Notes under the pieces: generated by a model
The model's input: only the letters and a program-made list of their open reading frames with translations
What the model was told of the DNA's origin: nothing
The model's database searches: none
Assembly (NCBI GenBank): GCA_026075535.2
Contig: AP026546.1
Span: 3,844,001-3,908,000 of the forward strand
Direction of reading: 5' to 3'
DNA length: 64,000 bases
Origin: Tricholoma matsutake
Taxonomy: Eukaryota; Basidiomycota; Agaricomycetes; Agaricales; Tricholomataceae
Part shown: positions 3,877 to 43,659 of the stretch, piece after piece
Numbering within the stretch: the stretch's first letter is position 1
Layout: every line of letters begins with the position of its first letter
Translations under genes and position numbers: made by a program

Positions 3877-4278
3877 TGTTAGAAAACCACCCCATTACCT
3901 AATAAACTTTCATTTTTATTTTATTATGTCGAATTACACTACATGACGCCAAATGACGCTACATTTTGATAGTGTGAGAATTTTATTTCGCACGCATCAC
4001 AATGTATGCGCATGTATGAGTGCGTCGGTAACAACAATGTACAATATATGTAACATAGTATATAAACCCTAAATATATGCCTAGGGGACCCCAGTTGTGT
4101 TCTCTTAGGTATTCCACCTATGTTTTTGGTGTGAAAGGCCTATCTCAACAAACTTACCTATTAATAACCCCTCACATCAAAACCATCAATTTCCCCATCA
4201 GGCGCACGGATCCTGCCCCCTTCTTGTAGAGAGAACCTGCATGGTCTTAGCTAGCAGATAGTGGGTGTCGCCCTAACA
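3877..4278 (+). repeat. 5' LTR of gypsy E1
   Basis: This 402-bp LTR has TG..CA ends (TGTTAGAAAACC...CGCCCTAACA). It is about 97 bp into U3 at ATTTCGCACGC, with a TATA box at 4059-4066. Compared with the solo LTR, most differences are CpG to TpG or CpA changes (for example CCCGCCCCC versus CCTGCCCCC near 4215). Confidence 0.93.
4059..4103 (+). promoter_or_regulatory. LTR promoter: TATA box and predicted transcript start
   Basis: TATATAAA at 4059-4066 lies 34 nt upstream of AGTTGTGTTCT (4093-4103). The latter is the sequence complementary to the primer-binding site and is the expected 5' end of a self-priming genomic RNA. The spacing is normal for TATA-directed initiation. The same arrangement exists in the other LTRs. 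The start site is inferred. Confidence 0.7.
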
Positions 4279-4280
4279 GA

Positions 4281-4291
4281 AGAACACAACT
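4281..4291 (+). other. Self-complementary primer-binding site
   Basis: AGAACACAACT lies 2 nt after the LTR end. It is the exact reverse complement of LTR positions 4093-4103, with the match ending at both sides (11 nt). There is no tRNA-type TGG at the LTR boundary. In Tf1 of fission yeast the first 11 nt of the mRNA fold back on the primer-binding site and prime reverse transcription; the geometry here is the same. The minus-strand copy conserves it (16974-16984 with its own LTR). Confidence 0.8.
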
Positions 4292-4764
4292 TCCCATATC
4301 AGTGCGCCTTCTCTTACTTGCGCATACGTCATTGTTTCACCGTGCCACATCCGATTACTCACCCTTTCGGCACGAGCCGGAAGTACTTGTATATATGTAA
4401 TCTACCTTTTCTTTCATAAGCTGATGCCAGGCCTTGCCTTACATTGCGACTGCCAGTGATCGAGAGGCAGCGCTCGTCATTAGGACAGCTGCAACCAGAC
4501 AACTGATCGGATCTGGTTTAGTTACGATTTACATCACTCTATTCAGACGACTATTTTAGTTACAAGCCGAATTCAGTGATATCTCTGAGATCAGGCACTG
4601 TTGGAAGGGTTGTTGATCCGAAGTGTCAAAATAGGCGCCCAATGAACGACAAACCATTGACGAACCTCGACGAACCTTATCACGTGACCCATAGACATTT
4701 GGAGAGGTCTCGAAGTAAAATTTTGAATTTGTCGAAGAAGTGATTCATCACAGATTCTACAATT

Positions 4765-5862
4765 ATGTCTGAACCTTCAACTTCTAATCCCAGTCCTAAT
4801 CCTGTTCCCATACCAGCACTAGAGGCAAAAATTGATGCGCTCACAGCACAAATGTTGCAATTAGTGTCAGTATTGGTAGCATCACAGCCCAGACAAGCAG
4901 AAGTATAGCCAGAGATGATAGGAGAAAGAGATGATGAGATGGAGGAGATGGTGGAGTGGATATCGCAGGAGGATGAGACAGTGGAGAAATCCAGAAATGG
5001 AAAAGTGCACTTACCTAAGTACATGCCCCCGCAAATCTTTGACAGTACCATGGAGAATACAAAATCCTTCATCAGCTCTATAGTATTGTACATCCATGGG
5101 AGGAAGCCCGAGTTTCGTACAGCCGAGTCTAGGATTATGTTTGCTCTCTCATACATTCAGGGGGGGAAAGCACAGTTCTGGAGAAACAAGGCTATTAATC
5201 AAATTGCCGCAGGAAATAAACCATTTGCAACCTTCAAGGAATTTCTGGAGAGATTGGAGGCACAGTTCGGAGACCCTAATCCAAAGGCAACAGCCAATGC
5301 TAAATTAAAGACCATGCGCCAAGGTTCCTTAATGGTGGATGAATTTATTTTGCAGTTCAAAGCAGAAGCTTCACAAACGGACATGGGAGAAGCCACGTTG
5401 GTAGAGTTTTTGAAAGCAGGATTAAATCCCTCTTTATTCAAGTCTATCTACTGACTACCTTCTATGCCAGAGAAGTTGGATGAGTGGTATAATTGGGCAA
5501 TGCGCCTTGACCAGCAATATTGGCGGGAACAGGCGGAGTCAAAGTTGATGTATGGAAGTAGTAAATTTGGAAAGTCATCAGGAGGAAAGTCCGAGAAAGG
5601 AAAGGTGCCTCAGGCACAAGCTCCGAGAGCACAGCCACCAGCCATGGCAGTGACACCTATAGTTACAGAGTCAGCAGCACCAGCAGAGGCAATGGAGGTT
5701 GATCAAGTGGGGAGACAAGCCCCACTTAAATGTTTTAACTGTGGGCAGTTAGGACACATTTCTAAGTATTGCAAGCAGAAGAGAAAGATCAGGGGAGCTA
5801 CAATCGAGGAAGTGAAGCAGGAGGAAGGCAAGCAGGAGAATTTTGTGGAAGAGTCCCAGTGA
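4765..5862 (+). pseudogene. E1 gag (capsid/nucleocapsid), interrupted
   Basis: The reading frame from ATG 4765 encodes a gypsy Gag: an N-terminal Ser/Pro/Asn-rich part, a retrotransposon-gag capsid domain (about residues 80-240, with QGGKAQFWRN and FATFKEFLERLEAQFGD), and one CCHC zinc knuckle CFNCGQLGHISKYC at about 5731-5772 (CX2CX4HX4C). It is broken by TAG near 4906 and TGA at 5452-5454. The minus-strand copy reads CAG and CAA respectively at these sites. The start is set by the matching ATG in both copies. The end overlaps pol, which lies in the -1 frame. Confidence 0.88.
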
Positions 5863-8800
5863 AGGTTTCCCCATTGGTGACCCAGAATTGTTACAATGTA
5901 TTAGTATCTGAGGAAACCCAGAGTAAATCAGAAAAGGAAATCAAGGAGGAGTACAACTGTTGCAAATCACACAACAAAGAAAATTGTCACATGTCATTTC
6001 CAAAAACCCCTAAATTCTTTATTTGCTCTGCGTGAATAGAACCCGAAATCACCTTGACTGTGGGACTGAAGACAGTGGACACGCATCCAGCTATTGATGT
6101 GGAAGCGTTGCTTGACAGTGGTGCTACAGGATTATTTATTAATTGATCCTTAATTACTGGAAACGGTATTAACACATGCAAGCTGGCGCAACCTATAATG
6201 GTGTACAATATTGATGGAACAGTCAATCGTGGAGGAACTATCAAGGAGGAGGTGACTATGGTACTAAAGTATCAGGAGCATCAGGAGCAAGCCATATTCG
6301 AAGTGTGCGATCTTGGGAAAACCAATCTAATAATAGGATGTCCGTGGTTATGGAAGCATAATCCCGAAATTGATTGGAAAACTGGGAAAGTACAAATGAC
6401 TCGTTGTCCTAAGGAATGTAATGTGTATGGGAGGAAGATGAAGAAAGAAGAAAGGAAAAAGAAAGAGAAAGAATGTCCGAGGAAGTATTCTGTTACAATG
6501 GAGGAAGTGGAGGATGAGGAAATGCCAAATGAGGAAGTTCCGATCCTGATCAAGAAAGAAGAGCAGAAGCAAACCTTTAGAGCAGTTCGTGGAGGACAGT
6601 CGTGGGACAAGAATATTGTGAAGGTGGAGAAGCCAGTGGAGGAATGGGTGCCAAAAGTGTATCATGAACATTTGTCAGTGTTCCAAAAGAAGGAGTCTGA
6701 GCGAATGCCAGTGCAGAAGCCATGGGATCATGCGATTGAGATGAAGCCAGGGTTTGTGCCAAAGAAGTCGAAGGTATATCCGTTATCTCCGATGGAACAA
6801 GAAGAAGTGGATGCATTCCTGAAGGAGCAATTGCGCAAAGGATACATATGACCTTCGAAATCACCGCAGACATCACCAATATTCTTCATGCCCAAAAAAG
6901 ACCAAAGGAAGAGGATGTGTACCAATTATAGGTATCTGAATGAGTGGACAGTGAAGAACGCATACCCCCTGCCATTGATCTCAGAAATAATTGATAAGGC
7001 GGGAAAAGCCAAGGTCTTTACAAAATTGGATTTATGATGGGGATACAACAATGTATGAATAAAGAAAGGAGATGAGTGGAAGGCTGCATTTGCCACGCGT
7101 CGAGGATCCTTCAAGCCACTTGTCATGTTTTTTGGGATGACTAATAGTCCCCCGACCTTTCAAAATATGATGAACAACATTTTCAAGGACATAATAGACA
7201 AAGGCGTGGTAATAATATTTATTGACGACATTCTGATATTCACAGAGGATGAAGAGAATCATGAGGCGATAGTGTAGGTGTTACGGAGGTTGGCGGAGAA
7301 TGATCTATTTTTGAAACCAGAGAAGTGTGTGTTTGGGGCAAGCGAGATTGAGTTCCTAGGATTATTGATTGGCCCTGATGGGATCAAAATGGATCTGATC
7401 AAGGTACAGGCAATCACAGATTGGCCTGCGCCCACCCATGTCAAGGAGGTTCAAGCCTTCTTGGGACTCACAAATTATTATCGTCGCTTTGTGCACAATT
7501 TTTCTAAAATTGCTGCACCCTTACATCACCTTATGCAAAAGGGAGTAGTGTGGAGGTGGGGAGAGCAGCAGCAGACAGTGTTTGAGGAGTTGAAGAGGAA
7601 GTTTGTGGAGGGACCAATATTAGCCCCAGTAGATTTCACATGCCCTTTGCGAGTGGAATCCAATGCATCTGATTTTGCTACTGGAGCAGTATTATCAATG
7701 CTGTGCAAAGATGACAAATGGCATCCTTGTGCATACTTGTCAAAAGGGTTGAATGATGTGGAGAGGAATTATGATGTGCATGACAAAGAGATGTTGGGGA
7801 TAATACGAGCATTGGAGGCATGGAGGCATTATTTGGAGGGATGTACGCATCAAATTGAGATCTGGACAGATCATCAAAATCTGCAATACTTCATGTCCAC
7901 TAAAAAGCTTAATCGCCGGCAAGCGCGTTGGGCACTATTCCTATTGCATTTCAACTTTCACTTGGTCCATAAAGTGGGAAGCTTAATGAGGAAAGCAGAT
8001 GCCTTATCCAGACGTATTGATCATAAAAGGGGGGTGGAGGAGGACAATAAAAATGTTACCTTACTCAAACCCGAATACTTTTGCATTTGCGCTATGCATC
8101 AAGGGCATCTATTAATAAATAGCTTGGAAACAGAAATGTTGTCTAAAATTAGACAATGTTCGGAAATGGACGATGAAGTAGTGGAAGCCGTGAAAGCTCT
8201 GAAGGGAGAGAAGAAAGGTAATATCAAAGGAGACGAATGGGCTGAGGAACAAGGGTTGGTGTTGTTTCGAGGAAAAGTGTATGTACCGAAGGATCAGGAT
8301 TTGCAAAGGGAGATTGTCCAGTTACATCACAATACGCCGATTGCCGGACACCCAGGAAGATGGAAGACGTTGGAATTAGTAATGAGAAATTATTGGTGGC
8401 CCGGAATTTCGAAGTATGTGTTGGGGTATGTGGATGGATGTGATACGTGCATGAGGGGGAAGAAATTTCCAGAGAAACCTGCAGGAAAATTAATGCTGAA
8501 CCCTATACCTAAAGCGCCATGGCAAGATATATCTGTGGATTTTATTACCAGATTACCTGAGGCTCAAGGGTACGATGCAATATTCATAGTATGCGACCGC
8601 TTTACAAAGGAGGTCCATATTATTCCTACTACTACAGAAACCTCATCATTAGGCTTGGCGCGCCTCTATCTAAATCAGGTATGGCGGTTACATGGGTTAC
8701 CAGATACCATTATCTCTGATCGTGGACCACAATTTGCTTCCGCATTTATGTGAGAACTAAACAACATATTGGGAATTCAAACTAAATTATCTATGGCATA

Positions 8801-9680
8801 TCACCCACAGACTGATGGGCAGACAGAGAGAATGAATCAGGAGTTGGAGCAGTACCTACGTATGTTTGTCAACTACCGACAAACCAACTGGCCCAAATGG
8901 TTGGCAATTGCCGAATTTTCCCACAATAACAAATTCCATTCAGCTACTCATATGTCACCCTTTTTCGCAAATTATGGATATCATCCTCGCATGGGAGTAG
9001 AACCCAGAAGGGAAGTCAAAGTACAGTCGGTAGAAGATTTTGTATCTAAGATGCAAAGGGTACAAGAGGAAGCAGAGGCAGCATTGAAGAAAGCACGTGA
9101 TGACATGATGCGACACGCGGATCATACTCGAGCACGTGCTCCAGAGTACAAAGTTGGTGACTTGGTATGGCTAAGTACCAAGGACCTGAATATTCCACGA
9201 CCTTCGAAGAAACTTACGGAGAAACAAGTTGGCCCATATGCGATCTCTAAAGTGATCTTGCCTAATGTGGTAGTGCTAAAATTACCCCGATCATTTAAGA
9301 TTGATCCTGAGATTAACGTATCCCACCTACGCCCTTACCGTCCGCCCACTATTCCTGGCCAACAAACTACTCCGCAACCTCCGATAATAGTAGAAGGTGC
9401 TCCAGAATACATAGTTGAAGAAATTCTAGACTCACGTCTTCGATGGAACAAATTGGAGTTCTTAATAAAGTGGAAAAACTATACCGACAAAAATAATTCG
9501 TGGGAACCCGAAGAGAATTGTAAGCGAGCGCATAACGTGATCACCCAATTCTTTAAACGTAATCTGAATGCTCCGCATCGCATTGCGAGAATGGTGTATG
9601 AGGGGATGAAATTCCGGCCTTACCAAAATTTCACAGAGGGGACAAACATAATATTTTCTCGCCTGGAAGTCGAGGCATAA
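5770..9680 (+). pseudogene. E1 pol: protease, RT, RNase H, integrase, chromodomain
   Basis: The domains follow in order. Protease has LLDSGAT near 6105. RT covers about 6650-7270, with TDYR-like and FGMTNSPPTFQ motifs and an intact FIDD catalytic box near 7218. RNase H covers about 7600-8000, where the first catalytic Asp appears as Asn in ESNASDF. The integrase has the HHCC region near 8320-8450 (LHHNTPIAGHPG, CDTC), the D,D,E core (VDFITRLP; YHPQTDGQTERMNQELE) and the C-terminal GDLVWLS. A chromodomain covers about 9400-9540 (EYIVEEILDSRLRW, FLIKWKNY, NSWEPEEN). Stops lie at 6033, 6143, 6849, 7035, 7056, 7274 and 8751, all TGA except 7274 (TAG). The copy cannot make a full polyprotein. Confidence 0.92.
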
Positions 9681-9690
9681 AAGGGGGGTA
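9678..9690 (+). other. Polypurine tract of E1
   Basis: ATAAAAGGGGGG directly precedes the 3' LTR start (TGTTAGG at 9692) and follows the pol stop. This is the expected plus-strand primer site of an LTR retrotransposon. Confidence 0.8.
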
Positions 9691-9691
9691 A

Positions 9692-9808
9692 TGTTAGGAA
9701 ACCACCCCATTACCTAATAAACTTTCATTTTTATTTTATTATGTCAAATTATGCTACATGACGCCAAATGATGCTACACTTTGATAGCATGAGAATTTTA
9801 TTTCGCAC
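9692..9808 (+). repeat. Truncated 3' LTR of E1
   Basis: This is the first 117 bp of U3, ending ATTTCGCAC. The intact LTR continues GCATCACAATG, but here it is replaced by the terminus of a minus-strand LTR (TGTTAGGGC at 9809). The pentamer CGCAC (9804-9808) would be the left target duplication of that insertion. No partner copy exists at the other end, consistent with a later deletion. Confidence 0.85.
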
Positions 9809-10055
9809 TGTTAGGGCAACACCCACTATCTGCTAGCTAAGACTGTGTGGGTTCTCTCTACAAGAAGGGGGCGGGATCCATGCGCGTGATGGGGAAATTG
9901 ATGGTTTTGATGCGAGGGGTTATTAATAGGTAAGTTTGTTGAGATAGGCCTTTCACACCGAAAACGTAGGTGGAATACCTAAGAGAACACAACTGGGGTC
10001 CCCTAGGCATATATTTAGGGTTTATATACTATGTTACATATATTGTACATTGTTG
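9809..10055 (-). repeat. Minus-strand 3' LTR fragment
   Basis: This is 247 bp of LTR starting at the intact terminus TGTTAGGGCAACACC and ending at GTACATTGTTG. There it joins directly to the reverse complement of the integrase C-terminal coding sequence (E1 equivalent near 9180). R and U5 are present and U3 is missing. Confidence 0.85.
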
Positions 10056-10438
10056 GTACTTAGCCATACCAAGTCACCAACTTTGTACTCTGGAGCGCAT
10101 GCTCGAGTACGATCCGTGTGTCACATCATGTCATCACATGCTTTCTTTAATGCCGCCTCTGCTTCCTCTTGTACCCTTTGCATCTTAGATACAAAATCTT
10201 CTACCGACTGTACTTTGACTTCCCTTCTGGGTTCTACTCCCATGCGAGGATGATATCCATAATTTGCGAAAAAGGGTGACATACGAGTAGCCGAATGGAA
10301 TTTGTTATTGTGGGAAAATTCGGCAATTGCCAACCATTTGGGCCAGTCGGTTTGTCAGTAGTTGACAAACATACATAGGTACTGCTCCAACTCCTGATTC
10401 ATTCACTCTGTCTGCCCATCAGTCTGCGGGTGATATGC

Positions 10439-12447
10439 GTAAACTTTGCACTCCCCCCCGTATTCCTATCGGAGTCCTAGGAGTCCGAGTTTTCCGATAA
10501 GAGTCCAATCAGAATCCGATAGGAGTCCTACTAGTCCAACACTAGTCCTAGGAGTCCGATAGGAATCCGATCAGAATGTATCTTGATGACCATGTACTTT
10601 TATTTCCAAGAAATTCTGAGTAAAGTCCTATGCAATTCCAACAGGTAGTAGTCGGAATACCACACCATTTCGGAAGACTTAACTTGATGAAAGTGCTTAC
10701 AAAATAAATGGGCAGAGCAGGAATTGAACTCTAGACCTTGGGATATAAGTGACATGACTACCAAAGAAGTGCTCAACCAGTTGAGCCACAGGAGCATTAA
10801 TAAATATGTAATATAAAGTCCATTTGAAGCACTTAAGATTAGTTCACTTATTTTTAACCTCTCTCACAAGAGCTCAAAAAAAAATTGTTGAGCCCTCGCA
10901 TCTTCGCGAGGGAGTTGATAAATATAGATTTTAAAAAAACCCCCCACGCAAATGCGAGGGGGACAATTAATTATACTATTTAATTATACTATTTTAAATT
11001 CTACAAAAAAAACCCACCCCCCCGCAAAATGGGGGGGAGGGGGTGGTGGTGCATCATGTTGGCTGTCTCGTCAGCCCTGTCCTGTTGTTTCCCCTCCCTC
11101 TTGTCTCCGTCGTGTCTCGCCTCCCTCACCTCACCTCCCCCGTGGCTTCCCTCCCCTCCCTTGTCTCCCCTCCCTCATTGTTCCACCCACTGTCCACCCC
11201 ACGAGCAGTTGCTTGCGAGGCTGGTGGTGGGTGGTGCGTTGTATGTTGGTGGCAGTGTTTGTCCATCGTCTCCCCTTCTGGTCATTGTTTCCCTTTCCCC
11301 TTGTCGTTTTGTCACCCTTGTCATTCATCCCCCTCATTGTCTGCACCCACGAACCACCCTACAGGCAGCTGCTTGTAGGCGTGTTATTTGGTGCCGTCGT
11401 TGTCCCTCCACGCTGTTCCCATGTTCTCGCACCCCATATACACCCCACGAGCAGTTGCTCACGGCGGTGATGAGGGGTGCTGGATGTCATTAGTGTCGTG
11501 GGGGTCCATGCACTCATGATCCACCCTACGAGCAGCAGCTCGTAGGCATGGGTGGGTGCATTGTCGGTTCATCAGTGACGTGGCTCGGGAGGGGTCGGGT
11601 GGTGCTTACCAGGTGGGTATTCCCCTTCTGGGGTCTCCTGGTGTTGCTCCCCATGCTCCTGACCATGATTGATACCCTCACATCCTGTTTTGATGGGGAG
11701 GAGGGGGGTTGCCAGGGGCATCATTGGGTGTGGGTTTGGCTCGCATCAGTCCATCGTTACTCATGTAGATTAGAACCTAGAAACAGAAAAAATGAATTAG
11801 TTAGTTTACAAAAGTAAAAAACGAATGAAAAAAACTTACTATGGCCCAAACAACGATTGTGTCATTTGGGCATCATTCAGTGTCAAAACCAGTCGTTTCC
11901 GGTCTTGGGGGCTCGTCTAGAGATGGGGGTGAAGTGGGAGTGGTGGGAGTTGCTGGGTTGAGATGGTTGAGGTGGGGGGGATGGAGGTGGCGTGCTTGTC
12001 ATCGTTGGTGGTGGTGGGAGGAGTTGATGAGCTGGCAGGTGTGATGATGCAGCTATGTGCTTTGTCATCACACCCGCGGGAATGGTATGTAGTGTAGTAT
12101 GATCACTTACCTGTAATGATTGTTTAGCCTAATGGTATTGTTGTCAGTTTACGCTTACATAATCTTCTGTAGTCAAGTGTTCAATTCTCGTCTGTGCGTT
12201 TAATTTTTCATACTATATTACTAAGTAAGGCTGCTTTCATTTTGGAATCCTATGTTGTCTGATGTCTTAGCATAACTTCGGACTAGTCCTATGTGATTTC
12301 TATGATCAGAAATTCCTAGGAAATTCTGATAGTCCGATCAGACTCTGATCGGACTACATCGGACTGGACTAGGACTAAATGTGCCATTTCATGTCAATTT
12401 GGCTGGTGAAAATGACATCAGAATATGGGGGGGAGTGTAAAGACCTC
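10439..12447. mobile_element. Non-autonomous hAT-like DNA transposon in the gypsy integrase
   Basis: The element is 2009 bp and flanked by the 8-bp duplication TGATATGC (10431-10438 and 12448-12455). Its removal restores the integrase sequence exactly as in E1. The termini are imperfect inverted repeats (GTAAACTTTGCACTCCCCCCC left; the right end reversed reads GAGGTCTTTACACTCCCCCCC). Both subterminal regions (10460-10575 and 12280-12378) are packed with GTCCGAT/GGAGTCCTA-type motifs, a typical transposase-binding layout. An 8-bp TSD indicates hAT. The interior has no transposase, only GC-skewed and low-complexity DNA and a tRNA-like block. Confidence 0.85.
10711..10797 (-). other. tRNA-like block (SINE head or tRNA relic)
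   Basis: On the minus strand the segment reads like a degenerate tRNA. An A-box-like TGGCTCAACTGG and a D-stem GCTC/GAGC are present, followed by a B-box-like GAGTTCAATTCC and a closing GCTCTGCCC. The anticodon and T stems do not pair properly, so it is not a functional tRNA gene. It may be the head of a SINE carried inside the hAT-like element. Confidence 0.45.
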
Positions 12448-15391
12448 TGATATGCCGTAGATAATTTAGTTTGAATTCCCAATATGTTGTTTAGTTCTTG
12501 CATAAACACGGAAGCAAATTGTGGTCCGTGATCAGAGATAACGGTATCAGGTAACCCATGTAACCACCATACCTGATTTAAATAGAGGCGCACCAAGCCC
12601 AATGATGAGGTTTCTGTAGTAGTAGGAATAATATGGACCTCCTTTGTAAAGCAGTCGCATACTACAAATATTGCATTGTACCCTTGAGCCTCGGGTAATC
12701 CAGTAATAAAATCCACAGATATATCTCTCCACGGCGCTTTAGGTATAGGGTTCGGCATCAATTTTCCTGCAGGTTTCTCTGGAAATTTCTTCCCCCTCAT
12801 GCACGTATCACATCCATCCACATACCCCAACACATACTTCAAAATTCTGGGCCACCAATAATTTCTCATTACTAATTCCAACGTCTTCCATCTTCCTGGG
12901 TGTCCGGCAATCGGCATATTGTGATGTAACCAGATGATCTCCCTTCACAAATCCTGATCCTTCAGTACATACACTTTTCCTCGAAACAACACCAACCCTT
13001 GTTCCTCAGCCCATTCATCTCCTTTGATATTACCTTTCTTCTCTCCCTTCAGAGCTTTCATGGCTTCCACTACTTCATCATCCATTTCCAAACATTGTCT
13101 AATTTTAGACAACATTTCTGTTTCCAAGCTATCTATTAATAGATGCCCTTGATGCATAGCGCAAATGCAAAAGTATTCGGGTTTGAGTAAGGTAACATTT
13201 TTATTGTCCTTCTCCACCCCCCTTTTATGATCAACACATCTGGATAATGCATCTGCTTTCCTCATTAAGCTTCCCGCTTTGTGGACCAAGTGAAAATTGA
13301 AATGCAATAGGAATAGTGCCCAATGTGCTTGCCAGCGATTAAGCTTTTTAGCAGACATGAAGTATTGCAGATTTTGATGATCTGTCCAGATCTCAATCTG
13401 ATGCGTACATCCTTCCAAATAATGCCTCCATGCCTCCAATGCTCGTATTATCCCCAACATCTCTTTGTCATGCACATCATAATTCCTCTCCACATCATTC
13501 AACCCTTTTGACAAGTATGCACAAGGATGCCATTTGTCATCTTTGCACAGCATTGATAATACTGCTCCAGTAGCAAAATCAGATGCATTGGATTCCACTC
13601 GCAAAGGGCATGTGAAATCTACTGGGGCTAATATTGGTCCCTCCACAAACTTCCTCTTCAACTCCTCAAACACTGTCTGCTGCTGCTCTCCCCACCTCCA
13701 TACTACTCCCTTTCGTGTAAGGTTATGTAAGGGTGTGGCAATTTTAGAAAAATTGTGCACAAAGCGACGATAATAATTTGCGAGTCCCAAGAAGGCTTGA
13801 ACCTCCTTGACACGGGTGGGTGCAGGCCAATCTGTGATCACCTGTACCTTGATTGGATCCATTTTGATCCTGTCAGGGCCAATCAATAATCCTAGGAACT
13901 CAATCTCGCTTGCCCCAAACACACACTTCTCTGGTTTCAAAAATAGATCATTCTCTGCCAACCTCCGTAACACCTCCTGTACTATCGCCTCATGATTTTC
14001 TTCATCCTCCGTGAATATCAGAATGTTGTCAATAAATATTATTACCACGCCTTTGTCTATTATGTCCTTGAAAATGTTGTTCATCATATTTTGAAAGGTT
14101 GGGGGACTATTAGTCATCCCAAAAAACATGACAAGCGGCTTGAAGGATCCTTGACGCGTGGCAAATGCAGCCTTCCACTCATCTCCTTTCTTTATTTGTA
14201 CATTGTTGTATCCCCATCATAAATTCAATTTTGTAAAGACCTTGGCTTTTCCCACCTTGTCAATTATTTCTGAGATCAACGGCAGGGGGTACGCGTTCTT
14301 CACTGTCCACTCATTCAAATACCTATAATCTGTACACATCCTCTTCCTTTGGTCTTTCTTTGGCACGAAGAATATTGGTGATGTCTGTGGTGATTTCAAA
14401 GGTCGTATATATCCTTTGCGCAATTGCTCCTTCAGGAACGCATCCACTTCTTCTTGTTCCATTGGAGATAACAGATATACCTTCAACTTCTTCAGCACAA
14501 ACTCTGGCTTCATCTCAATTGCATGATCCCATGGCTTCCACACCGGCATTCGCTCAGACTCCTTCTTCTGGAACACTGACAGATGTTCATGATACACTTT
14601 TGGCACCCATTCCTCCACTGGCTTCTCCACCTTCACAATATTCTTGTCCCATGACTGTCCTCCATGAATTGCTCGAAAGGTTTGCTTCTGCTCTTCTTTC
14701 TCGATCATGACTGGAACTTCCTCATTTGGCATTTCCTCATCCTCCACTTCCTCCATCATAACAGAATACTTTCTCGGATGTTCTTTCTCTTTCTTTTTCC
14801 TTTTTTCCTTCTTCATCTTCCTCCCATACACATTACATTCCTTAGGACAACAAGTCATTTGTACTTTCCCAGTTTTCCAATCAATTTCGGGATTATGCTT
14901 CTGTAACCATGGACATCCTATTATTAGATTGGTTTTCCCAAGATTGCACACCTCGAATATGGCTTGCTCCTGATGCTCCTGATACTTTAGTACCATAGTC
15001 ACCTCCTCCTTGATAGTTCCTCCACGATTGACTGTTCCGTCAATATTGTACACCATTATAGGTTGCGCCAGCTTGCATGTGTTAATACCGTTTCCGGTAA
15101 TTAAGGATCAATTAATAAATAATCCTGTAGCACCACTATCAAGCAACGCTTCCACATCAATAGCTGCATGCATGTCCACTGTCTTCAGTCCCACAGTCAA
15201 GGTGATTTCAGGTTCTATTCGCGCAGAGCGAATAAAGAATTTAGGGGTTTTTGGAAATAGTGCTCAGCAATTTTCTTGGTCACATGATTTGTAACAGTTG
15301 TACTCCTCCTCGATTTCCTTTTCTGATTTACTCTGGGTTTCCTCGGATACTAATACATTGTAACGATTCTGGGTCACCAATGGGGAAACCT

Positions 15392-16489
15392 TGACTGGGA
15401 CTCTTCCACAAAATTCTTCTGCCTGCCTTCCTCCGGCTTCACTTCCTTGATTGTAGCTTCCCTAATCTTCCTTTTCTGCCTACAATTCCTCGCGATGTGT
15501 CCTAACTGCCCACAGTTAAAACATTTAAGTGGGGCTCATCTCCCTGCTTGATCAATCTCCATTGCCTCTGCTGGTGCTGCTGACTCCGTAACTATAGGTG
15601 TCACTGCCATGGCCAGTGGCTGTGCCCTTGGAGCTTGCGCCTGAGCTGCCTTTCCTTTCTCGGACTTTCTTCCAGATGACTTTCCAAATTTACTACTTCC
15701 ATACATCAACTTTGACTCTGCCTGTTCCTGCCGATATTGCTGGTCAAGGCGCATTGCCCAATTATACCACTCATCCAACTTCTCTGGCATAGAAGGTAGT
15801 TGGTAGATAGACTTGAATAAGGAGGGATTTAATCCTGCTTTCAAAAACTCTACCAATGTGGCTTCTCCCATGTCCATTTGTGAAGCTTCTGCTTTGAACT
15901 GCAAAATAAATTCATCCACTGTTAGGGAACCTTGGCACATGGTCTTTAATTTAGCATTGGCTGTCGCCTTTGGATTAGGGTCTCCAAACTGTGCCTCTAA
16001 TCTCTCCAGAAATCCCTTGAAGGTTGCAAATGGTTTGTTTCCCACGGCAATTTGATTAATAGCCTCGTTTCTCCAGAACTGTGCTTTCCCCCCCTGAATG
16101 TATGAGAGAGCAAACATAATCCTAGACTCGGCTGTACGAAACTTGGGCTTCCTCCCATGGATGTACAATACTATAGAGCTAATGAAGGATTTTGTATTCT
16201 CCATGGTACCATCAAAGATTTGTGGGGGCGTGTACTTAGGTAAGCACACTTTTCCATTTCCAGATTTCTCCACCATCTCATCCTCCTGCAATATCCACTC
16301 CATCATCTCCTCCATCTCATCATCTCCTTCTCCTATCATCTCTGGCTGTACTTCCGCTTGTCTGGGCTGTGATGCTGCCAATACTGACACTAATTGCGAC
16401 ATTTGTGCTGTGAGCACACCAATTTTCACCTCTAGTGCTGGTATGGGAACAGGATTAGGACCGGGATTAGAAGTTGAAGGTTTGGACAT
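15392..16489 (-). pseudogene. E2 gag, interrupted before the zinc knuckle
   Basis: The start at 16489 matches E1's gag start. The frame is open through the capsid domain to TGA at 15536-15538, just upstream of the CCHC knuckle. E1 has CAA at that codon. The sequence beyond still encodes a knuckle (CFNCGQLGHIARNC). Conversely this copy is open (CAA, 15800-15802) at the codon where E1 has TGA. The end of the frame is approximate because the gag stop itself is altered. Confidence 0.85.
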
Positions 16490-16986
16490 AATTGTAGAAT
16501 CTGTGATGAATCACTTCTTCGACAAATTCAAAATTTTTTCTTTGAGACCTCTCCAAACATTTACGGGTCATGTGATGGTTCATCAATTGTTCATCAATTG
16601 TTCATCAATCGTTCGTCATTCGTCAGGCGCCTATTTTGACACTTCAGATCAATAACCCTTCCAACAGTGCCTGATCTTGGAGATAACACTGAATTCGGCT
16701 TGTAACTAAAATAGTCGTCCGAATAGAGTGATGTAAATCATAACTAAACCAGACCCGATCGGTTGTCTGGTTGCAGCTGTCCTAATGACGAGCGCTGCCT
16801 CTCGATCACTGGCAGTCGCAATGTAAGGCAAGGCCTGGCATCGGCTTATGAAAGAAAAGGTAGATTACATATATACAAGTACTTCCGGCTTGTGCCAAAA
16901 GGGTGAGTAATCGGATGTGGCACGGTGAAACAATGACGTATGCGCAAGTAAGAGAAGGTGCACAGATATGGGAAGTTGTGTTCTTC

Positions 16987-17387
16987 TGTTAGGGCGACAC
17001 CCACTATCTGCTAGCTAAGACCATGCAGGTTCTCTCTACAAGAAGGGGGTGGGATCCGCGCTTGTGATGGGGAACTGATGGTTTTGATGTGAGGGGTTAT
17101 TAATAGGTGAGTTTGTTGAGATAGGCCTTTCACACCAAAAATGTAGGTGGAATACCTAAGAGAACACAACTGGGGTCCCCTAGGCATATATTTAGGGTTT
17201 ATATACTATGTTACACATATTGTACATTGTTGTTACCAATGCACTCGTACATGTGCATACATTTTGATGCATGCGAAATAAAATTCTCATGCTATCAAAG
17301 TGTAGCGTCATTTGGCATCATGTAGCGTAATTTGACATACTAAAATAAAAATGAAATTTTATTAGGTAATGGGGTGGTTTCCTAACA
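16987..17387 (-). repeat. 5' LTR of the outer minus-strand gypsy element
   Basis: This 401-bp LTR with TG..CA ends is complete. The self-priming site lies just outside its left end (AGTTGTGTTCT at 16974-16984 on the plus strand). AGGAC at 17388-17392 duplicates 3593-3597 and so defines the outer insertion. Confidence 0.92.
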
Positions 17388-18883: not shown

Positions 18884-20898
18884 ATCTTACTGTCTATCTC
18901 TTTTTACTGTTGAACACTGCCACAAACCAACTAGCCCTTGAAGAGCTGTTCAGGGACCCCAGCATCAAGAGAATTGCTGGGCATGCATCATCATTGTTTA
19001 AAACCTACTTCCCTTGGATGCATGCTTATTATCAGGAAACTCTGGAAGCCCTCCTCAAAGCACATCCCCATACATATCTATGTCCAGTTCATGGTTCGGA
19101 CCACTTGAGAACCAGAACCTGACCATTTTGAACTGAACCAACAGTCCAGTCCAAGGTTCGCTATAATCTATGGACCAAACCAATAGTCTGGTTCTGGGTT
19201 CTCCAAAATCCCTTAAAGAACTGGACTGAACCGAACCTTACCATCCCTAGATTCAACTGTGATCTTCTAGCTTCGCTACCATTTCCAGTTGAATCTTCAT
19301 AGTGAACTTCTCATCTTCTCATTGCCTTCATTATATTTATCATGAGCACATATCATAGAACTCTTTGCATGGCTCAGCTTCTTTTTTCATTGCCCTCCCT
19401 CTGCTCCCTTTGTATTATATAGATATCTACTCCTTGTCTTTCATAGTATCTCTCATCTAGCCTCTCCATTCCTTCGTTTATCCATTTTTTGGGGTCCATC
19501 AGGACCTCTGATTGCGCTACCTTGGTCCATCTTGAGCCACGCAGCAGAGCGCTACATCCTTGCCAGTGGAGGTTCCCTGGCACATGACCTTACCTGACTA
19601 ATCATTTTTACTGTGATGTGTCATGGTTTTCCGATCACTCTGCTGGGTATAAATAGATGCAAATATCGGAAAAAGAACTAAAAATTAAAAGAATTGCTGG
19701 CTCCTTCCACAAAAGTCTGCAGCCATTTTCTACTAATCAAAAAAACTGCAACTGGACTTAGGATTCTTCACAACTACTATTAATCCTTTTCAAAATGTCT
19801 TTTGGTGCTGTTGGTAGTGAATAAGCAAACAACAGGTATTTTTGCTAAACAAATGGACCAGGTCCTCATAGAATAATATGAGTATAATTGAAATCTACAG
19901 TACATGGACATGTGAAGTACCTGAGTCTAACCTTTTCATGTGTATTTAGCCCACAGCTGAGAATCTGAAATCTGGGGATGTGACAACTGCCTAGAAGGTC
20001 ACTGACTGCTGGGTATACTGCACTACAAGTTGCTTGAAACCTCCCTGATACCTGTGGAATATCTTCCAGTAGTTTAATAGTAGATTCATAGCAAAATATA
20101 GGTGTGCAGATTAATATTGAGGAGTGACCAAGAAAGACATGATCCTAAGCAAAGTCTTGTCTCATTTTTAAATTACAGCAGGGGATATTAAATGGAAGAC
20201 ATCTGAAATGAACTAAGAGTGCTTGTTTGGAAGATACAGCTGTGGATCCAGAGTGGAAACCAATAATATTGGGTGGATGGCTAATAACTGACCCCTATGG
20301 CAGATAACTTGTGGCAGTGCCACTGTCAGGCTAATAACAGCAGATCAATTTCCTCGGCCCATAGAAGCCCAAATAATTTTTTGAAAAGACAGAAACACCA
20401 TATTATTGTTGTACTATTTGCATGTAAAACAAGGTAGTATGACAAGCAGAAGTACAACCCAGAGAGACAAATGTTGTCGTGAGCACGGCAATTGCCGTGG
20501 CTAATAACGTTATTAGACACCCAGCACAGTGATCGGTAAGCCTGTGTCACTGTGCATGTGCGAGCCAGCAAAATTTGAATGTGTACATGTGTGCTCTTTG
20601 TGTCCATCAATCACAATCTTCTCATTCTTTCTCGGCACGGTCAGGTCCGATTCTGACTGGGTGCATGAGAGGCCTAGTCATGAAGGTTACGCTGTAACCT
20701 TCATCATTAGATTCTGTGCGTTGTTTTTACTGCTCGATTCTATGTCGCCATTTTTGGCGTCTTGTTCATTTCTTTCCACAAGATGGGAAATCTAACATAA
20801 GAACGCTGTGTTCTGCCGACATCCTTTTGTCACCCGGTTGAACATTATCGGCCGCAGCCGAGCGCTCGAACTTTCATCTCGTCAAAGTCGCATTGAAA
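18884..20898. other. Gene-poor stretch with hAT-type terminus and palindrome cluster
   Basis: No gene is supported. 19090-19250 is rich in GAACC/GGTTC repeats and ends CTTACCATCCCTAG, whose reverse complement CTAGGGATGGTAAG looks like a fungal hAT terminus; the other end was not found. Three dyad symmetries lie at 20484-20555. 20640-20890 resembles 23190-23415 and belongs to the tandem duplication of the MFS genes. Confidence 0.5.
20484..20555. repeat. Cluster of three dyad symmetries
   Basis: CACGGCAATTGCCGTG (20484-20499) and CTAATAACGTTATTAG (20501-20516) are perfect 16-bp palindromes separated by one base. GCACAGTGA (20524-20532) pairs with TCACTGTGC (20547-20555) across a 14-nt loop. 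GGCTAATAAC also occurs near 20275 and 20331. The role is unknown; operator sites or transposon ends are possible. Confidence 0.7.
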
Positions 20899-22965
20899 TT
20901 AATCTGCTCGCCGTGCCGAAGTAGGAACAAACGCCCACATCACCGTCATTACAGACATCATCGCTACCAACCTGCGCAGACGAGAATACCATGCAGTCAG
21001 CAATTACACACAAAAACATTGGTTGGTAAGAGAAAACGAGGCGAAGAATGAAAGAAGTGATCAGGTTACTCACAGGGGCTGCAAGCTCTTGATGCCAAAC
21101 CTCGACGATAATGCACCTGTCATGAATGGGAGCACTGCACTTCCCGCCTGACCGAACCCCGCGATCCACCCAACTGAGCCCGTGAGCATCCATTGAGGTA
21201 TGACATGACCCGCACGGTTCATGGTAATAGGATACATTGGCCCTAGAGCGATACCTACAAGGGAAACTGCCACAGCGTCGCCAACTACTGACGGCACGAA
21301 CCAGACGACAAATTCGAGCCTCACCAGGGCGATGCGCAGCCTGGTTAGAGAAGGTATGAACGACAGATAAAACACGTACCCAATCGCAAGGATAGCATAG
21401 ATGAATAGAACCCGATGTTCGCCCACCTGATTGAGATCACGATGTTAGGTTGGAAGCGTATAACTGGGATATGGTGCGTTACTGACTTTTTTGTTGACCC
21501 AGAGAAGCGCAACACGGCCCAACATAAGGCCTAGATACTTCAAGAAAACGTTTTATAAACGATCGGAAAAACAACGTACCACCAAAAAAGCCAGTAGAGA
21601 TGTAACCGGATGTTGCCCCGCCTCCTCGTGCACGGATGATGAAGGTTACAATCCATCCTGAAGTTCAACGCCGAAACTCAGGGCCGAATCGGTCAACAAA
21701 GTCAAAGCATTGCGAACCTCCAATAGTGACCTCAACCCCGATATAAATGAGAGTGAAGAAGGCGAGAAGATGTACAGTCTTCTGAGATAAAATCTGACGA
21801 AGCGCGCTGTGACTACTTGTTCCTCTTTCCGGGGCGGGTTGACCAATTTCAATCAAGCATTCTGGGATCCATAGGTGAGTGTCAAATATAAACCAGTGAA
21901 AGATACGTACCATTATACGTTTTGAATCGGAAAACAGTAATAAGAAAGATAGTGTTTGAAATCGCAATGCCGAGAGAGATAAGATAATGAAATGACCAGT
22001 GACGCGCTTGTGCGAATTGTGTCGCAACAATAGGAGCAAGTAGTGCACCGAGGCCTAATGGATAAATACGAACCCAGCGTCTATATCAGCAAGTGTCTAG
22101 AAATTCTTGACGCACCATAACCAGCAGCGAGGATGCCCATCCTGGTTTCGGCACGGTCTTTTATACTCGCGACATAGCCAATCGCTTGGGAATCCTTTGT
22201 GCAGGATCAAATGAGCCTGGGATGCGTAAACTTCGCGAGGAGGGGCTGACCTGGATTGCTATGCCGAAACTATTGAGGGCGAAGCAGATAAGATACACCG
22301 GGAAGGGTAGACCCGGAGATTGAATGGAGTAGGCTACAACTTGACAGAGAGAACCTGTAAATGGAGTCAGAATCCTTACTACCTGCGTTGAAAGTTTGAA
22401 GAATACCTATGATGAGAGCCTAGCGAGCTATTCGTCAGAAGAGACATTATTCATCGTTGTGAAAATACAGACCTTCCCCATTCCATATTTCTCGGATAGC
22501 GGTACATTTGTCACGGCTCCTAATAGATATCCCTGACAGATGTGAGTAATTGAATTGTAACTCTGCGAGAGTCACTTACTACGCAGGCGAGGACGAAAAC
22601 CAAAGATACCAAGAAATATCCCACCTACAAAGTTACAGGCCATCTAAGCCTTCCTTTCTAAAATTTTCGAAAAAAGTTACATTGTAAACTCTTTGGATCC
22701 TGGGTAGGAGTGGTCCTGTCGAGCCATCATTCCAGCCAGTGAGGAATAAGGTCCAACAAAGAGCGGTGAACTGAAGCTGAGTCCTGTTCATCTGCTTCCT
22801 CGTTGGTGCAGACGTGTCAGCCTTAGAGTCAACATTGGCATATATGGTCTTCTCGCTCCCTTCATCGACCCTCGTTTCCTCGGATGAAGCTGGTTTCTTA
22901 ACATCATCAACTTCAGCAGGCTTTTCGTGCGTAAAATCTTGATTCTGAGTTTGTGCCTGTGACAT
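20899..22965 (-). CDS. MFS transporter, BSC6/fucose-permease-like (copy 1)
   Basis: This multi-exon gene encodes a major facilitator superfamily membrane transporter; the substrate is unknown. It starts at MSQAQTQNQ (22963-22965) with a hydrophilic N-tail, then CWTLFLTGWNDGSTGPLLPR, the conserved signature after TM1 of the fungal BSC6-like family. Further exons encode ISLGIAISNT-like and GPMYPITMNRAG segments and the late helices WIAGFGQAGSAVLPFMTG. The last intron is 20972-21073 (donor CCCCT|GTGAGT). The final exon ends ...TSARRAD and TAA at 20899-20901. It is paired head-to-tail with a close paralogue at 23420-25436. Internal exon borders are not all resolved here. Confidence 0.85.
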
Positions 22966-23419
22966 TATGTCTGAGGAAGCGTCGGTGTGATTGGACGACT
23001 TCGAAGGTATTTATATTGCGAACTTGTGGGAACAACAGTTGGAGATTTCCTTGAGATTGACTCCAGATTGACATCGCCTATTTTGCGGTAATGCCCCTGA
23101 CAAAAATCAGACACGTGATGTTCGCAGTCCCCGGATCAATGATGGGAGAGAATACCGAGAAGGTTCCGCGTGGACCCAGGACTGCGTCGTGAGAGGGCAG
23201 GAGAGGCCTAGTCATAAGGCCAAGGTTACGTTGAAAGATTTTGCTTGGTTCAATGCTCGCTTCTATGTCGTCATTTTCGGTGGGTTGTTCCCTTTCCACG
23301 AGAACTTGGCTAATGACTAAAGAATTGACATGACATGAGAGCGTGGTGTTCTGCTGACGTCCTTTCGTCATCCGCACCGCTTCAGGCCGAGGCCGAGTGC
23401 ATGAACTCTCCTAAAGAAG
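22966..23419. other. Spacer between duplicated MFS genes
   Basis: It serves as the upstream region of copy 1 and the downstream region of copy 2. 23190-23415 resembles the sequence downstream of copy 1 (shared GAGAGGCCTAGTCAT, TTCTATGTCG, GTTCTGC..ACGTCC blocks), so the duplication unit includes 3' flank. Confidence 0.7.
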
Positions 23420-25436
23420 TTAATCTGTACGCCGTGGCACCCTCGGAACAAGCGCCCACATCACGGTCATTAAAGACATCATCACTACTAACCTGAACCG
23501 AGAGCGATGAGTAATCATACGCAACGGCGCATAAAAATAACGAGCAAAGTACTCACAAGGGCTGCAGACTCCTGATCCCAAACTTCGACGAGAATGCGCC
23601 AGTCATGAACGGGAGCACGGCACTGCCCGCCTGACCGAACCCTGCAATCCATCCAATCGAGCCCGTAAGCAGCCATCGAGGTAGGACACGTCCCGCATGG
23701 TTCATTGCAAGAGGATACATCGGTCCCAGGAGCATACCCACTAGAGAGACTGCCACAGCATCGCCAACTAGGGAGGGTACAAACCAGACGACCAGTTCGA
23801 GTCTTGGGGTGAAGTCGCCCAATTAGGTGAGGTGCGAACGGAAGGGAAAGGACTTACCCGATCGCGAGGAGGGCATAGATGAAAAGGACACGGCGTTCTC
23901 CCACCTGATCCGGGGATGATGTTAGCTTAGAAGCGTGGAATGTGGTGCATTGCTGACTGTTTTGTTAACCCAGAGAAGGGCAACACGACCGAACATGAGA
24001 CCTAAACCGTTTAGATATATAATATATTTATTGAATGATTAGGAACACGACATACCGCTGAAAAATCCAGTTGAGACGTAACCGGATGATGGTCCGCCCC
24101 CTCGTACGTTGATTATAAAGGTCACAATCCATCCTGACGTTCAACACCGAAACTCAGGGCCGAATCGGCGAACAAAAGTCAAAACATTGCGAACCTCCAA
24201 CAGTGACCTCAACCCCTACATAAACGAGAATGAAGAAAGCGAGAAGATGTACAGTCTTATGCGATAGAATTTGACGAAACGTGCTTTCGCTACTGGTTCC
24301 TTCTTCCGCGGCGGCTTGGCCTATTTCTACCAAACATTCTGCGATTTCGATCAGTGGCAGCTAGATACATACCCAGAGGGAGAGAAATATACCATCCTGC
24401 GTTTTGAATCGGAAGACAGCAATAAGCATGATGGTGTTTGAAATCGCGATGCCGAGAGAGACGAGGTAATGAAATGACCAGCGACGCGCTTGCGCAAATT
24501 GTGTCGCGACTATAGGGGCACATAGTGCACCAGCACCTGAATGCAAACACAGCGTCTACATCAGCACGCATCTGAAAGATTCTTGACGCACCATACGCGG
24601 CGTGGAGAATGCCCATTTTGGTTTCAGCGTTGTCTTTGAGACTTGCGACAAAGCCATTCGCTTGGGCATCCTTTATGAAAGCGTCATATGAACCTGACAT
24701 AGACTTCTTTGAGAGGAGAGACTGACCTGAACCGCTAAGCCGAAACCGTTGATGGCGAAACATATGACGAACATCGGAAACGGAAAAGCAGGGGCTTGTA
24801 AGGCGTAGGCTATGGCTTGGAATAGAGAACCTGCGCTTGCTCAAAATCGTTGCTACTGCGTTGAACGTTTGAAAAAAATACCTATAACGAGAGCCTAGCG
24901 AGGTGTTCGTCAGAAGATCTTCACTGTGAGAGAAACACGAACCTTGCCCAGGCCCAGTTTCTCGGATAGGGGTACATTCGCTAAGGCGCCTGATATGAAT
25001 CCCTGACACAAATTGCTCAACGCAAAAGTTACGACTTGAGACACAAACACACTGTGCATGCAACAACGAAAATCAAGGACACCACAGCAAATCCCACCTA
25101 CACAATTACAGACATACATCAATATTTTTCTGTTTAAGATATTCAAGGAAAACATACGTGGTAAACCTCTTGGATCCTTGGTAGAAGGGGTCCTGTGGAG
25201 GCGTCGTTCCAGCCAGCGAGGAACAAAGTCCAGCAAAGAGTGATGAACTGTATCCGAGCCTTTTTCACTTGCTTCCTGGATGGAGATACCGCAAATTCGT
25301 TAACCTGGGAGTCAGAATTGGGATCTCTGGTCACGGTCTTCTTGAGCGTTTGATCACCCTCCAATGCTACTAGTATCTCGAAATCATCAACAACAGGCTT
25401 TCTGTGGGTATAATCTTGTAGTTGAATTTCTGACAT
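23420..25436 (-). CDS. MFS transporter, BSC6/fucose-permease-like (copy 2)
   Basis: This is a tandem paralogue of the preceding gene with the same exon plan. The start is MSEIQLQDYTHRKP (25434-25436), followed by CWTLFLAGWNDASTGPLLPR. Exons encode GAGALCAPIVATQFAQARRW, YLVSLGIAISNTIM and GPMYPLAMNHAGRVLP, then the final WALVPRVPRRTD and TAA at 23420-23422. The last intron is 23493-23556. An upstream in-frame ATG at 25554 would add 40 residues without family support, so 25436 is preferred. Similarity to copy 1 is high in the membrane segments and weak in the N-tail. The gene could be intact, but every junction was not checked. It is divergent from the PPR gene. Confidence 0.82.
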
Positions 25437-25822
25437 TGCGTCTGAGGAAGCGGACGTCAGTGCGACTGGACTTGGACTAGACGCTGGCTGGACGACTTGA
25501 AAAGTGGTTATAATGTTAGTCCGGTGACCGGACCGTCGTAATATGGATATGTACATAAGTTATATAGCATCGGCGAGTTCTGTCAAGTTCTGTCTTTGCA
25601 AAAAAATCAGATCTTTTAGACACGAGGCGTTACACTTGTTTCCGGTATCGTTAGTTTATCAACCCAAAGGGGTTTTGTGTGGAAGAAATTGCAGGGTTCG
25701 TTGACCTGGACCAGCGTAATGATCTCGCCCTCGTGACTAGTACTGGTCATGTGTTGCTTCAAAGTTTTTCTGTTATACGACGTTGGCCTGTTCGTTTTGG
25801 CGAGAATTGGACTAGATATGAC
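25437..25822. other. Divergent upstream region of MFS copy 2 and PPR gene
   Basis: No motif is identified with confidence. In-frame ATGs upstream of both genes exist but the protein families do not support them. Confidence 0.5.
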
Positions 25823-27790: not shown

Positions 27791-27882
27791 TATTATCAAG
27801 CACTGCGATTCACTCTATTTCACTCTATCACCAAGTACAAGGCGCACAGACGTAAGCCTAGTCAAAACTCATGTCAACCCGT

Positions 27883-28750
27883 CTATCGCGCTGTTGTTCT
27901 CTGTCCGCCTGTCTTCTCCGAAACCTTGTCTACGAGGGGCGCATCCGCGGCGTTAGAGGCAGGAACCTCAAGTTTAGAATTCACATCCCTGCGTGGCGAT
28001 CGCATGTCCCCTTTGAAGCCGATATAATAGATCCTCGAAATCTCTTCACCCACGGATTCATTCTTAAAACCCCTTGTCAGTACAATTTATGATGTCACGA
28101 AGTGCGGACATACGAAGAACAAAGAGAGAGAAGTGATGCTGGCGAATGCCGCCACTCGTAACGGATACTCCACTACACCGGTCTCCCCTTCCAAAAGGCT
28201 GATATTGAGATGGGGCTTGGTCGCTTCTGCGTCCGTGAAATCGACAATGGTAGGGTGATTTGCGTATATTCGAAGATGACGCGGGGCCAACTCCCCTCTG
28301 CCTATCCAAGCAGTAGTAAAATATCCCTGCACAAGTAAAACAAGATTGTTTCACCTAGCTTTAATATCACTGATTTTATCCTAACGTTTTGTGTGAACGG
28401 TATATGAATGATAAGCTAGTAAACAACCACGTAAGACGTCGCGGGGTTAAACAATAAATGAGGACCAACTTGGTCGTCGACGCCAGAATCCGCAAACTTC
28501 GCAGTATCGTCTCTTTCATCCCAAGGTTTAATCACTGCCCTTGCATCTTCTGGCACCGCCAAATTGAGGCCATACACGCTTTCTCAAAGTAGGGTGAAAT
28601 GAGAGACCCTAGCCTCAACAAAGTCCGACGCGATTTTGAGGCTCACTTGTCTTTATCGATGACCCCGTAGAGATTAGCTATGTCCGGCCCAGCTAGACTT
28701 GAAGCTATTGAATCCGCAGTGAATTGTGAGTTGTCTTGAGATTCTGACAT
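27883..28750 (-). CDS. PITH-domain protein (PITHD1-like)
   Basis: Five exons were resolved by splice sites and family fit: 28750-28647, 28578-28470, 28415-28355, 28301-28114 and 28062-27883. They total 642 nt (213 residues plus TAG), and all introns are GT..AG. The single domain is PITH, the proteasome-interacting domain of thioredoxin-like proteins, with the family landmarks NLYGVIDKDNVYGLNL, IKPWDERDDTAKF, IHIPFTQNVRIKSV, LRIYANH, VDFTDAEATKP and SRIYYIGFKGD. No thioredoxin domain is present, so it resembles stand-alone PITHD1. It is convergent with PPR (92 bp apart) and divergent from uS5m (88 bp between ATGs). Confidence 0.92.
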
Positions 28751-43599: not shown

Positions 43600-43659
43600 A
43601 TGGCATGGTCCTCTTTCTCTCCGATATCATGATGTTATTAGTAAGAGTGAGCAATATGG

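What the first reader, a model, noticed from the sequence alone, without database searches (positions are those of the whole stretch)
4765..15802. Reciprocal TGA/CAA codons between two gypsy copies reveal CpG decay of ancestral CGA
At five aligned codons one copy has TGA and the other CAA: 5452 (TGA) versus 15800 (CAA); 5716 (CAA) versus 15536 (TGA); 7056 (TGA) versus 14196 (CAA); 8304 (CAA) versus 12945 (TGA); 8751 (TGA) versus 12498 (CAA). TGA and CAA differ at two positions, but each is one C-to-T change (on opposite strands) from CGA. Arg is the conserved residue at the 7056 site in gypsy RT (NNVRI). LTR comparisons show the same CG/TG/CA triads.
Basis: partly seen in the sequence, partly recalled or inferred. 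Interest (0 to 1): 0.75.

Follow-up and report, generated by a model that had tools for sequence, protein, structure and literature searches.

The report
CpG decay in mushroom gypsy retrotransposons
Two dead copies of a mushroom jumping gene differ in a tell-tale way because most mutations since they landed hit C-G letter pairs, the scar expected from chemical tagging of mobile DNA; the effect is already known in this kind of fungus.

Summary
All five TGA/CAA codon pairs are there (copy-B coordinates one base off). Between the copies TG/CA mismatches number 40, against 2 for the GT/AC control. In 37 other copies the five sites pool to CGA 87, CAA 45, TGA 44, GGA 1, as predicted. Over 39 copies, 213 of 214 CpG columns show all three states, and TA is 6 of 7,970. 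CpG cytosines change about 36 times to 67 times as often as other cytosines, and at least 38 times in 25 within-element LTR pairs. Both strands are hit alike, without strand runs; the favoured 5' base is A, not T; at one edge CpG depletion ends within 500 bp. Best explanation: CpG methylation of transposons and independent deamination of single sites, rather than classical RIP. CpG-biased hypermutation of transposons in Tricholoma matsutake, which this genome very probably is, is already in print (PMC6980582). What is sharper here is the separation from RIP and a CpG/non-CpG ratio above the human one of about 18. No methylation data could be examined.

The parts
3877..4279 (+). Copy A, 5' LTR (403 bp)
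   Evidence: Self-comparison; the same structure in 25 of 30 LTR pairs examined
4280..9690 (+). Copy A, internal region (gag, pol with RNase H, integrase and chromodomain), interrupted by in-frame stops
   Evidence: Frames; Pfam RT_RNaseH, Integrase_H2C2, weak rve, Chromo; CpG o/e 0.60
9691..9808 (+). Copy A, truncated 3' LTR (about the first 117 bases)
   Evidence: Match to 3876-3993
16986..17387 (-). Copy B, 5' LTR
   Evidence: Self-comparison
12448..16985 (-). Copy B, internal region up to its insert; aligned with copy A at 93.8%
   Evidence: Pfam Retrotrans_gag in 15536-16510; Ty3 RT/RNase H match for 12948-14216; CpG o/e 0.49
10439..12447 (.). Sequence that splits copy B, not matched in copy A
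   Evidence: Alignment gap between 12448 and 10438
10053..10438 (-). Copy B, further internal piece (matches 8796-9181 at 96.1%)
9808..10059 (-). Truncated LTR piece in copy B's orientation, probably the rest of its 3' LTR
   Evidence: Reverse match to 4028-4279; assignment to copy B is inference
5452..8753 (+). Span in copy A of the five codons that are TGA in one copy and CAA in the other
   Evidence: pooled states in 37 other copies
20501..52000 (.). Comparison region with host genes and near-normal CpG (o/e 0.95)
   Evidence: kinase, ribosomal S5 and PPR matches

Best explanation
The two copies are independently decayed members of one chromodomain-bearing Ty3/gypsy family that spread in a near-star burst. 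After insertion their CpG sites were, by inference, methylated by the fungus's CpG methylation machinery (DNMT1/MASC2 class). Each methylated CpG then mutated on its own, on either strand, by deamination to TpG or CpA. One hit destroys the site, so a CpG ends as TG or CA and hardly ever as TA, and an Arg codon CGA ends as TGA in one copy and CAA in another. Shown here: CpG specificity, strand symmetry, single-hit behaviour, near-independence of neighbouring sites, depletion in the transposon parts of the window, CGA as the third state at the five sites. Inferred: methylation as the cause, and the enzyme class.
For: TG/CA 40 against GT/AC 2 and CG/TA 0 between A and B. Pooled states at the five sites in 37 other copies: CGA 87, CAA 45, TGA 44, GGA 1. 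C-to-T at CpG 1,659/7,395 against 352/57,101 elsewhere. 213 of 214 CpG columns have CG, TG and CA; TG 1,791 and CA 1,758 are balanced; TA 6 of 7,970. In-frame stops over 39 copies: TGA 169, TAG 7, TAA 7. LTR pairs, identical at insertion by the known replication of LTR elements: 25 of 30 pairs give p = 0.37 changed per CpG and lineage and a CpG/non-CpG ratio of at least 38, bootstrap 25-66. Neighbouring changed CpGs on the same strand 0.4959, shuffled 0.4921 +/- 0.0114. CpG o/e 0.46 (1-20 kb), 0.95 (20.5-52 kb), 0.52 (53-64 kb), with a step from 0.20 to 1.06 at 20.5 kb. DNMT1-RFD matches at two loci with BAH matches beside both. Published: two masc2 genes, rid and dim2 not found in T. matsutake (PMC6980582, passages).
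Against: No methylation data were seen. The ratio of 36 to 67 is above the human 18, so plain spontaneous deamination needs weak T:G repair or help. Sites differ in mutability (variance 0.0152, binomial 0.0067). TG/CA exceeds the equal-rate expectation in LTR pairs (45 against 34.9). Same-direction double hits exceed reciprocal ones over copy pairs (16,122 to 13,753). TG:CA per copy is slightly overdispersed (chi-square 56.7, 38 df). CpG change does not track non-CpG change in the LTR pairs (Spearman -0.10, p 0.64), and regression over copies leaves an intercept of 0.45 +/- 0.02, though both tests are weak. Not every transposon bin is CpG-poor (0.93 at 16.5-17.0 kb) and the edge near 53 kb is gradual.
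Confidence: 0.78

Rival explanations
1. An active RIP-like process of the sexual cycle recognises repeats and hypermutates their CpGs in bursts, through a MASC2-class enzyme.
For: High CpG/non-CpG ratio. Intercept above zero when CpG load is set against private non-CpG change (weak). Authors call CpG-biased change in T. matsutake and Ganoderma RIP (PMC6980582; PMC4457147; passages).
Against: No CpA preference (CpA 132/20,062). No TpCpG preference of the Pucciniomycotina kind. No strand runs; element-wide bursts of one strand would have to number about 19 or more per copy (worked by hand). No leakage at the 20.5 kb edge. A diverged duplicate in the gene region is unaffected (CA/TG 6, AC/GT 8), but at about 73% identity it may be too diverged to be a target.
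Confidence: 0.17
2. The CG/TG/CA states are old diversity of several source elements and not decay in place.
For: A few copies belong to more divergent branches (median divergence up to 7.0%).
Against: LTR pairs within single insertions show the same states. 213 of 214 CpG columns are three-state, and shared inheritance would not yield reciprocal pairs at such a rate. Stops are mostly TGA (169 of 183), which active sources could not carry.
Confidence: 0.03
3. Sequencing or assembly error at methylated cytosines.
For: Some read types are known to err at modified bases (recalled).
Against: The assembly that matches in size and contig number used PacBio HiFi reads (PMC10211490, passages). L004 and L005 share 51 identical decayed sites over one tract, which error would not give. 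Homologues carry Gln, Trp or Cys at the same Arg.
Confidence: 0.02

Closest known systems
CpG-biased C-to-T hypermutation of transposons in Tricholoma matsutake (Min et al. 2020, PMC6980582; passages read)
   Same: Very probably the same species; CpG bias in repeats; gypsy elements the main class; masc2 in two copies, rid and dim2 not found
   Different: Reported as genome-wide repeat statistics, with the mechanism left open; no reciprocal-state, LTR-pair or strand-run test in the passages read
CpG-biased mutation and CpG methylation of transposons in Ganoderma sinense (PMC4457147; passages read)
   Same: CpG preference and methylated transposons in an agaricomycete
   Different: There bisulfite data exist and CpA is the second target; here CpA is at background
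RIP-like TpCpG hypermutation in Microbotryum (PMC5381629, passages read; Horns et al. 2012 known only through citing papers)
   Same: Gypsy burst in a basidiomycete with C-to-T change at CpG
   Different: T before CpG is not favoured here
Neurospora RIP
   Same: Irreversible C-to-T change in repeats
   Different: CpA target (PMC4352252, passages) against CpG here
CpG depletion by 5mC deamination in humans
   Same: CpG to TpG/CpA on both strands, one site at a time
   Different: Here limited to transposon parts of the window, with a ratio about two to four times the human 18
marY1, the gypsy element of T. matsutake
   Same: About 6 kb with a 426-bp LTR, spread over all 13 chromosomes in T. bakamatsutake (PMC10627285, passages); here 403-bp LTR and about 6 kb
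   Different: The marY1 record was not available, so identity is not shown

Membership tests
Chromodomain Ty3/gypsy LTR retrotransposon | Gag, RT/RNase H, integrase in gypsy order, chromodomain | tested here: met
   Retrotrans_gag, RT_RNaseH, Integrase_H2C2, Chromo; rve below its cut-off; Ty3 RT/RNase H match E 1.5e-53
Chromodomain Ty3/gypsy LTR retrotransposon | Flanking LTRs | tested here: met
   25 of 30 examined copies have two near-whole LTRs; copies A and B have a whole 5' LTR and a truncated 3' one
marY1 | High identity to the marY1 record | not testable with these tools
   Record not available; size and LTR length alone agree
Decay by CpG methylation and deamination | C-to-T confined to CpG, equal on both strands | tested here: met
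   1,659/7,395 against 352/57,101; TG 1,791, CA 1,758
Decay by CpG methylation and deamination | Single-hit: CG to TG or CA, not TA | tested here: met
   TA 6 of 7,970; 0 in A/B; 1 in LTR pairs
Decay by CpG methylation and deamination | 5mC present at these CpGs | not testable with these tools
   No methylation data
Decay by CpG methylation and deamination | CpG methyltransferase genes in the genome | tested here: met
   DNMT1-RFD at two loci, BAH beside both, a further cytosine methylase domain on C13
Neurospora-type RIP | CpA preference | tested here: not met
   CpA 132/20,062, like CpT 135/19,001
Neurospora-type RIP | RID gene | tested here: inconclusive
   PF00145 gave one match but the search reads exon by exon and cannot class it; absence of rid is reported in PMC6980582
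Neurospora-type RIP | Leakage into flanking unique DNA | tested here: inconclusive
   Sharp at 20.5 kb, gradual near 53 kb; only two edges seen
Pucciniomycotina RIP-like process | TpCpG target | tested here: not met
   Share changed by 5' base: A 0.291, C 0.215, T 0.204, G 0.190; TCG lowest of four

The most novel reading that the evidence does not exclude
This fungus mutates transposon CpGs at two to four times the human methylated-CpG ratio to other sites, with no RIP signature. Either T:G repair at methylated CpG is exceptionally weak, or an enzyme (a MASC2-class methyltransferase, or an oxidation route through the many TET/JBP genes) speeds deamination one CpG at a time: a RIP-independent mutational defence of mushrooms.
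Probability: 0.22. Interest if true: 0.7.

Novelty: already known. Interest (0 to 1): 0.35.

Why it matters
Whether mushrooms have RIP is left open in the matsutake genome paper (PMC6980582). Reciprocal TG/CA states, LTR pairs and the strand-run test separate a memoryless CpG process from classical RIP with one assembly and could be used on any fungus with young LTR elements. The high CpG ratio also means that ages of such elements taken from total LTR divergence are overestimated unless CpG is masked.

Tried and rejected
Burst or clock: regression of CpG load on private non-CpG change gave an intercept above zero, but in the younger copies (35 of 39 with at most 20 private changes) the age measure is mostly counting noise, and in the older ones it is mixed with subfamily history; the same test on 25 LTR pairs had little power. 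Left open. The UDG family search (PF03167) gave no hit, but its first look had no candidates at all and a uracil glycosylase is expected in nearly any fungus (recalled), so this does not show that T:G repair is missing. PF20266 was a wrong accession that I guessed; it bears on nothing. The GpC control is inflated because GpC overlaps CpG (as in CGC), so the reciprocal class GT/AC served as control. The ratio of 67 sets all CpG changes against private non-CpG changes only and so leans high; the same-filter figure is 36. Horns et al. 2012 is not held.

Full report
Where it is. The window lies in a genome of 161,040,721 bases in 13 contigs, which matches the published telomere-to-telomere matsutake assembly of 13 sequences and 161.0 Mb (PMC10211490; start of abstract, passages). 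The species is an inference; no tool named it. The two elements are chromodomain-bearing Ty3/gypsy copies lying tail to tail: A from 3877 to about 9808 on +, B from 17387 down to about 9808 on -.

Observation. The five TGA/CAA pairs are aligned and in frame. Of 4,942 aligned columns 288 differ, 253 by transition. Dinucleotide pairs are CG/CG 57, CG/TG 52, CG/CA 58, TG/CA 40, CG/TA 0; the control GT/AC is 2. A CpG that has changed once is no longer a CpG, so reciprocal TG/CA pairs and the lack of TA are what single-hit decay predicts.

Other copies. A 1.5-kb probe gave 41 matches, a lower bound: copy A itself and 40 others, two of which lie in one locus, so 39 loci were taken. With A and B added and L040 and L004 dropped, 39 copies were counted. 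Apart from L004/L005 they form a near star: each copy's median divergence from the rest is 3.6-7.0% (40 copies). At the five sites the 37 other copies pool to CGA 87, CAA 45, TGA 44, GGA 1, with 8 of 185 unreadable. Over 39 copies in-frame stops are TGA 169, TAG 7, TAA 7; of 28 codon columns with any TGA, 21 also have both CGA and CAA. At the RT site, of 120 listed homologues (2,063 found) 118 cover the residue: Arg 110, Gln 5, Trp 2, Cys 1. All three exceptions can arise from an Arg codon by one CpG transition, but the DNA of those proteins was not seen; among the five most alike (65% or more) Arg is 1, Gln 2, not covered 2. Ty3 has Pro there.

Context. C-to-T by next base: CpG 1,659/7,395, CpA 132/20,062, CpC 85/18,038, CpT 135/19,001, a ratio of 36 for CpG to the rest; copy A alone has 47/198 against 4/1,536. 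In 214 CpG columns the states are CG 4,384, TG 1,791, CA 1,758, TA 6, others 31; 213 columns have all of CG, TG and CA. Share changed by 5' base: A 0.291, C 0.215, T 0.204, G 0.190. Adjacent changed CpGs are on the same strand in 0.4959 of cases, shuffled 0.4921 +/- 0.0114; joint hits at neighbours 0.2025, shuffled 0.1993 +/- 0.0027.

Rate ratio. The median hazard per CpG cytosine is 0.293; private C:G-to-T:A change at sites that are CpG in no copy is 0.0044; the ratio is about 67 and leans high for the reason given under Tried and rejected. LTR pairs need no assumed ancestor: 25 of 30 pairs give CG/CG 196, CG/TG 127, CG/CA 107, TG/CA 45 (34.9 expected at equal rates), CG/TA 1, with 41 transitions and 28 transversions in 9,114 other columns. 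Counting every non-CpG transition as C-to-T, the ratio is at least 38, bootstrap 25-66. Human rates read in PMC5619689 are 1.12e-7 (CpG transitions) and 6.18e-9 (non-CpG transitions), a ratio of about 18.

Compartment. CpG o/e is 0.46 in 1-20 kb, 0.95 in 20.5-52 kb and 0.52 in 53-64 kb. It steps from 0.20 to 1.06 between adjacent 500-bp bins at 20.5 kb but falls more gradually over 52-53.5 kb, and one bin inside copy B is 0.93. A diverged duplicate in the gene region has no reciprocal excess: CA/TG 6, AC/GT 8.

Enzymes. DNMT1-RFD matches lie at two loci, on C4 and C3, with BAH matches beside both, in keeping with two masc2 genes reported for T. matsutake (PMC6980582). A further cytosine methylase domain is on C13, class not determined. 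In basidiomycetes DNMT1 and DNMT5 go with CG methylation (PMC7862722, passages).

Reading. Methylation followed by single-site deamination fits best. Against classical RIP: no CpA preference, no TpCpG preference, no strand runs, a sharp edge at 20.5 kb. Neurospora RIP can act on both strands (title of a reference seen), so the strand test is not decisive alone. Weighing the other way: the ratio is above the human one, sites differ in mutability, same-direction double hits exceed reciprocal ones (16,122 to 13,753), and CpG load does not track age in the small LTR data. An enzyme-assisted CpG process is therefore not excluded.

Continuing decay. L004 and L005, neighbours in opposite orientation, share 51 decayed CpG states over about 2.75 kb (bins 6000-8500) but look unrelated outside it; within the tract they differ at 6 CpGs and 2 other sites. 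This looks like gene conversion of already decayed DNA followed by a little more CpG decay.

Novelty. CpG-biased hypermutation of transposons is in print for T. matsutake (PMC6980582) and for Ganoderma (PMC4457147). In the listings I saw no reciprocal-state or LTR-pair test in a mushroom; those searches cover only the open-licence library, and I read only listings and the passages named.

Noticed in passing
L004 and L005 (C13, about 6.4 kb apart, opposite orientation): A tract of about 2.75 kb shares 51 decayed CpG states while both flanks look unrelated: a likely gene-conversion tract between inverted neighbours.
   Followed up: partly
window 9691-10059: Copies A and B meet tail to tail at about 9808, where two truncated LTR pieces of opposite orientation join without spacer.
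   Followed up: partly
window 2557-4279: LTR cluster: an LTR at 2557-2967 and an inverted LTR piece at 3587-3875 directly abutting copy A's 5' LTR.
   Followed up: no
window 10439-12447: About 2 kb of C-rich sequence splits copy B; it is not matched in copy A.
   Followed up: no
window 55872-61742: Minus-strand LINE-like element with reverse transcriptase, RNase H and zf-RVT matches, strong AT skew and low CpG.
   Followed up: no
window 20663-25471: A tandem duplicate about 71% alike in the gene region, without reciprocal TG/CA excess.
   Followed up: partly
G000, all contigs searched: 61 matches to Tet_JBP (PF12851), a large TET/JBP family, some with in-frame stops, that could act on 5mC.
   Followed up: no
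L009 1387-2731: Cytosine methylase domain (PF00145, 52 bits) in a gene whose start resembles a PCNA-binding motif (recalled); class not determined.
   Followed up: partly
G000: No match to the UDG superfamily (PF03167) at E 0.1; the search reads exon by exon, so absence is not shown.
   Followed up: partly
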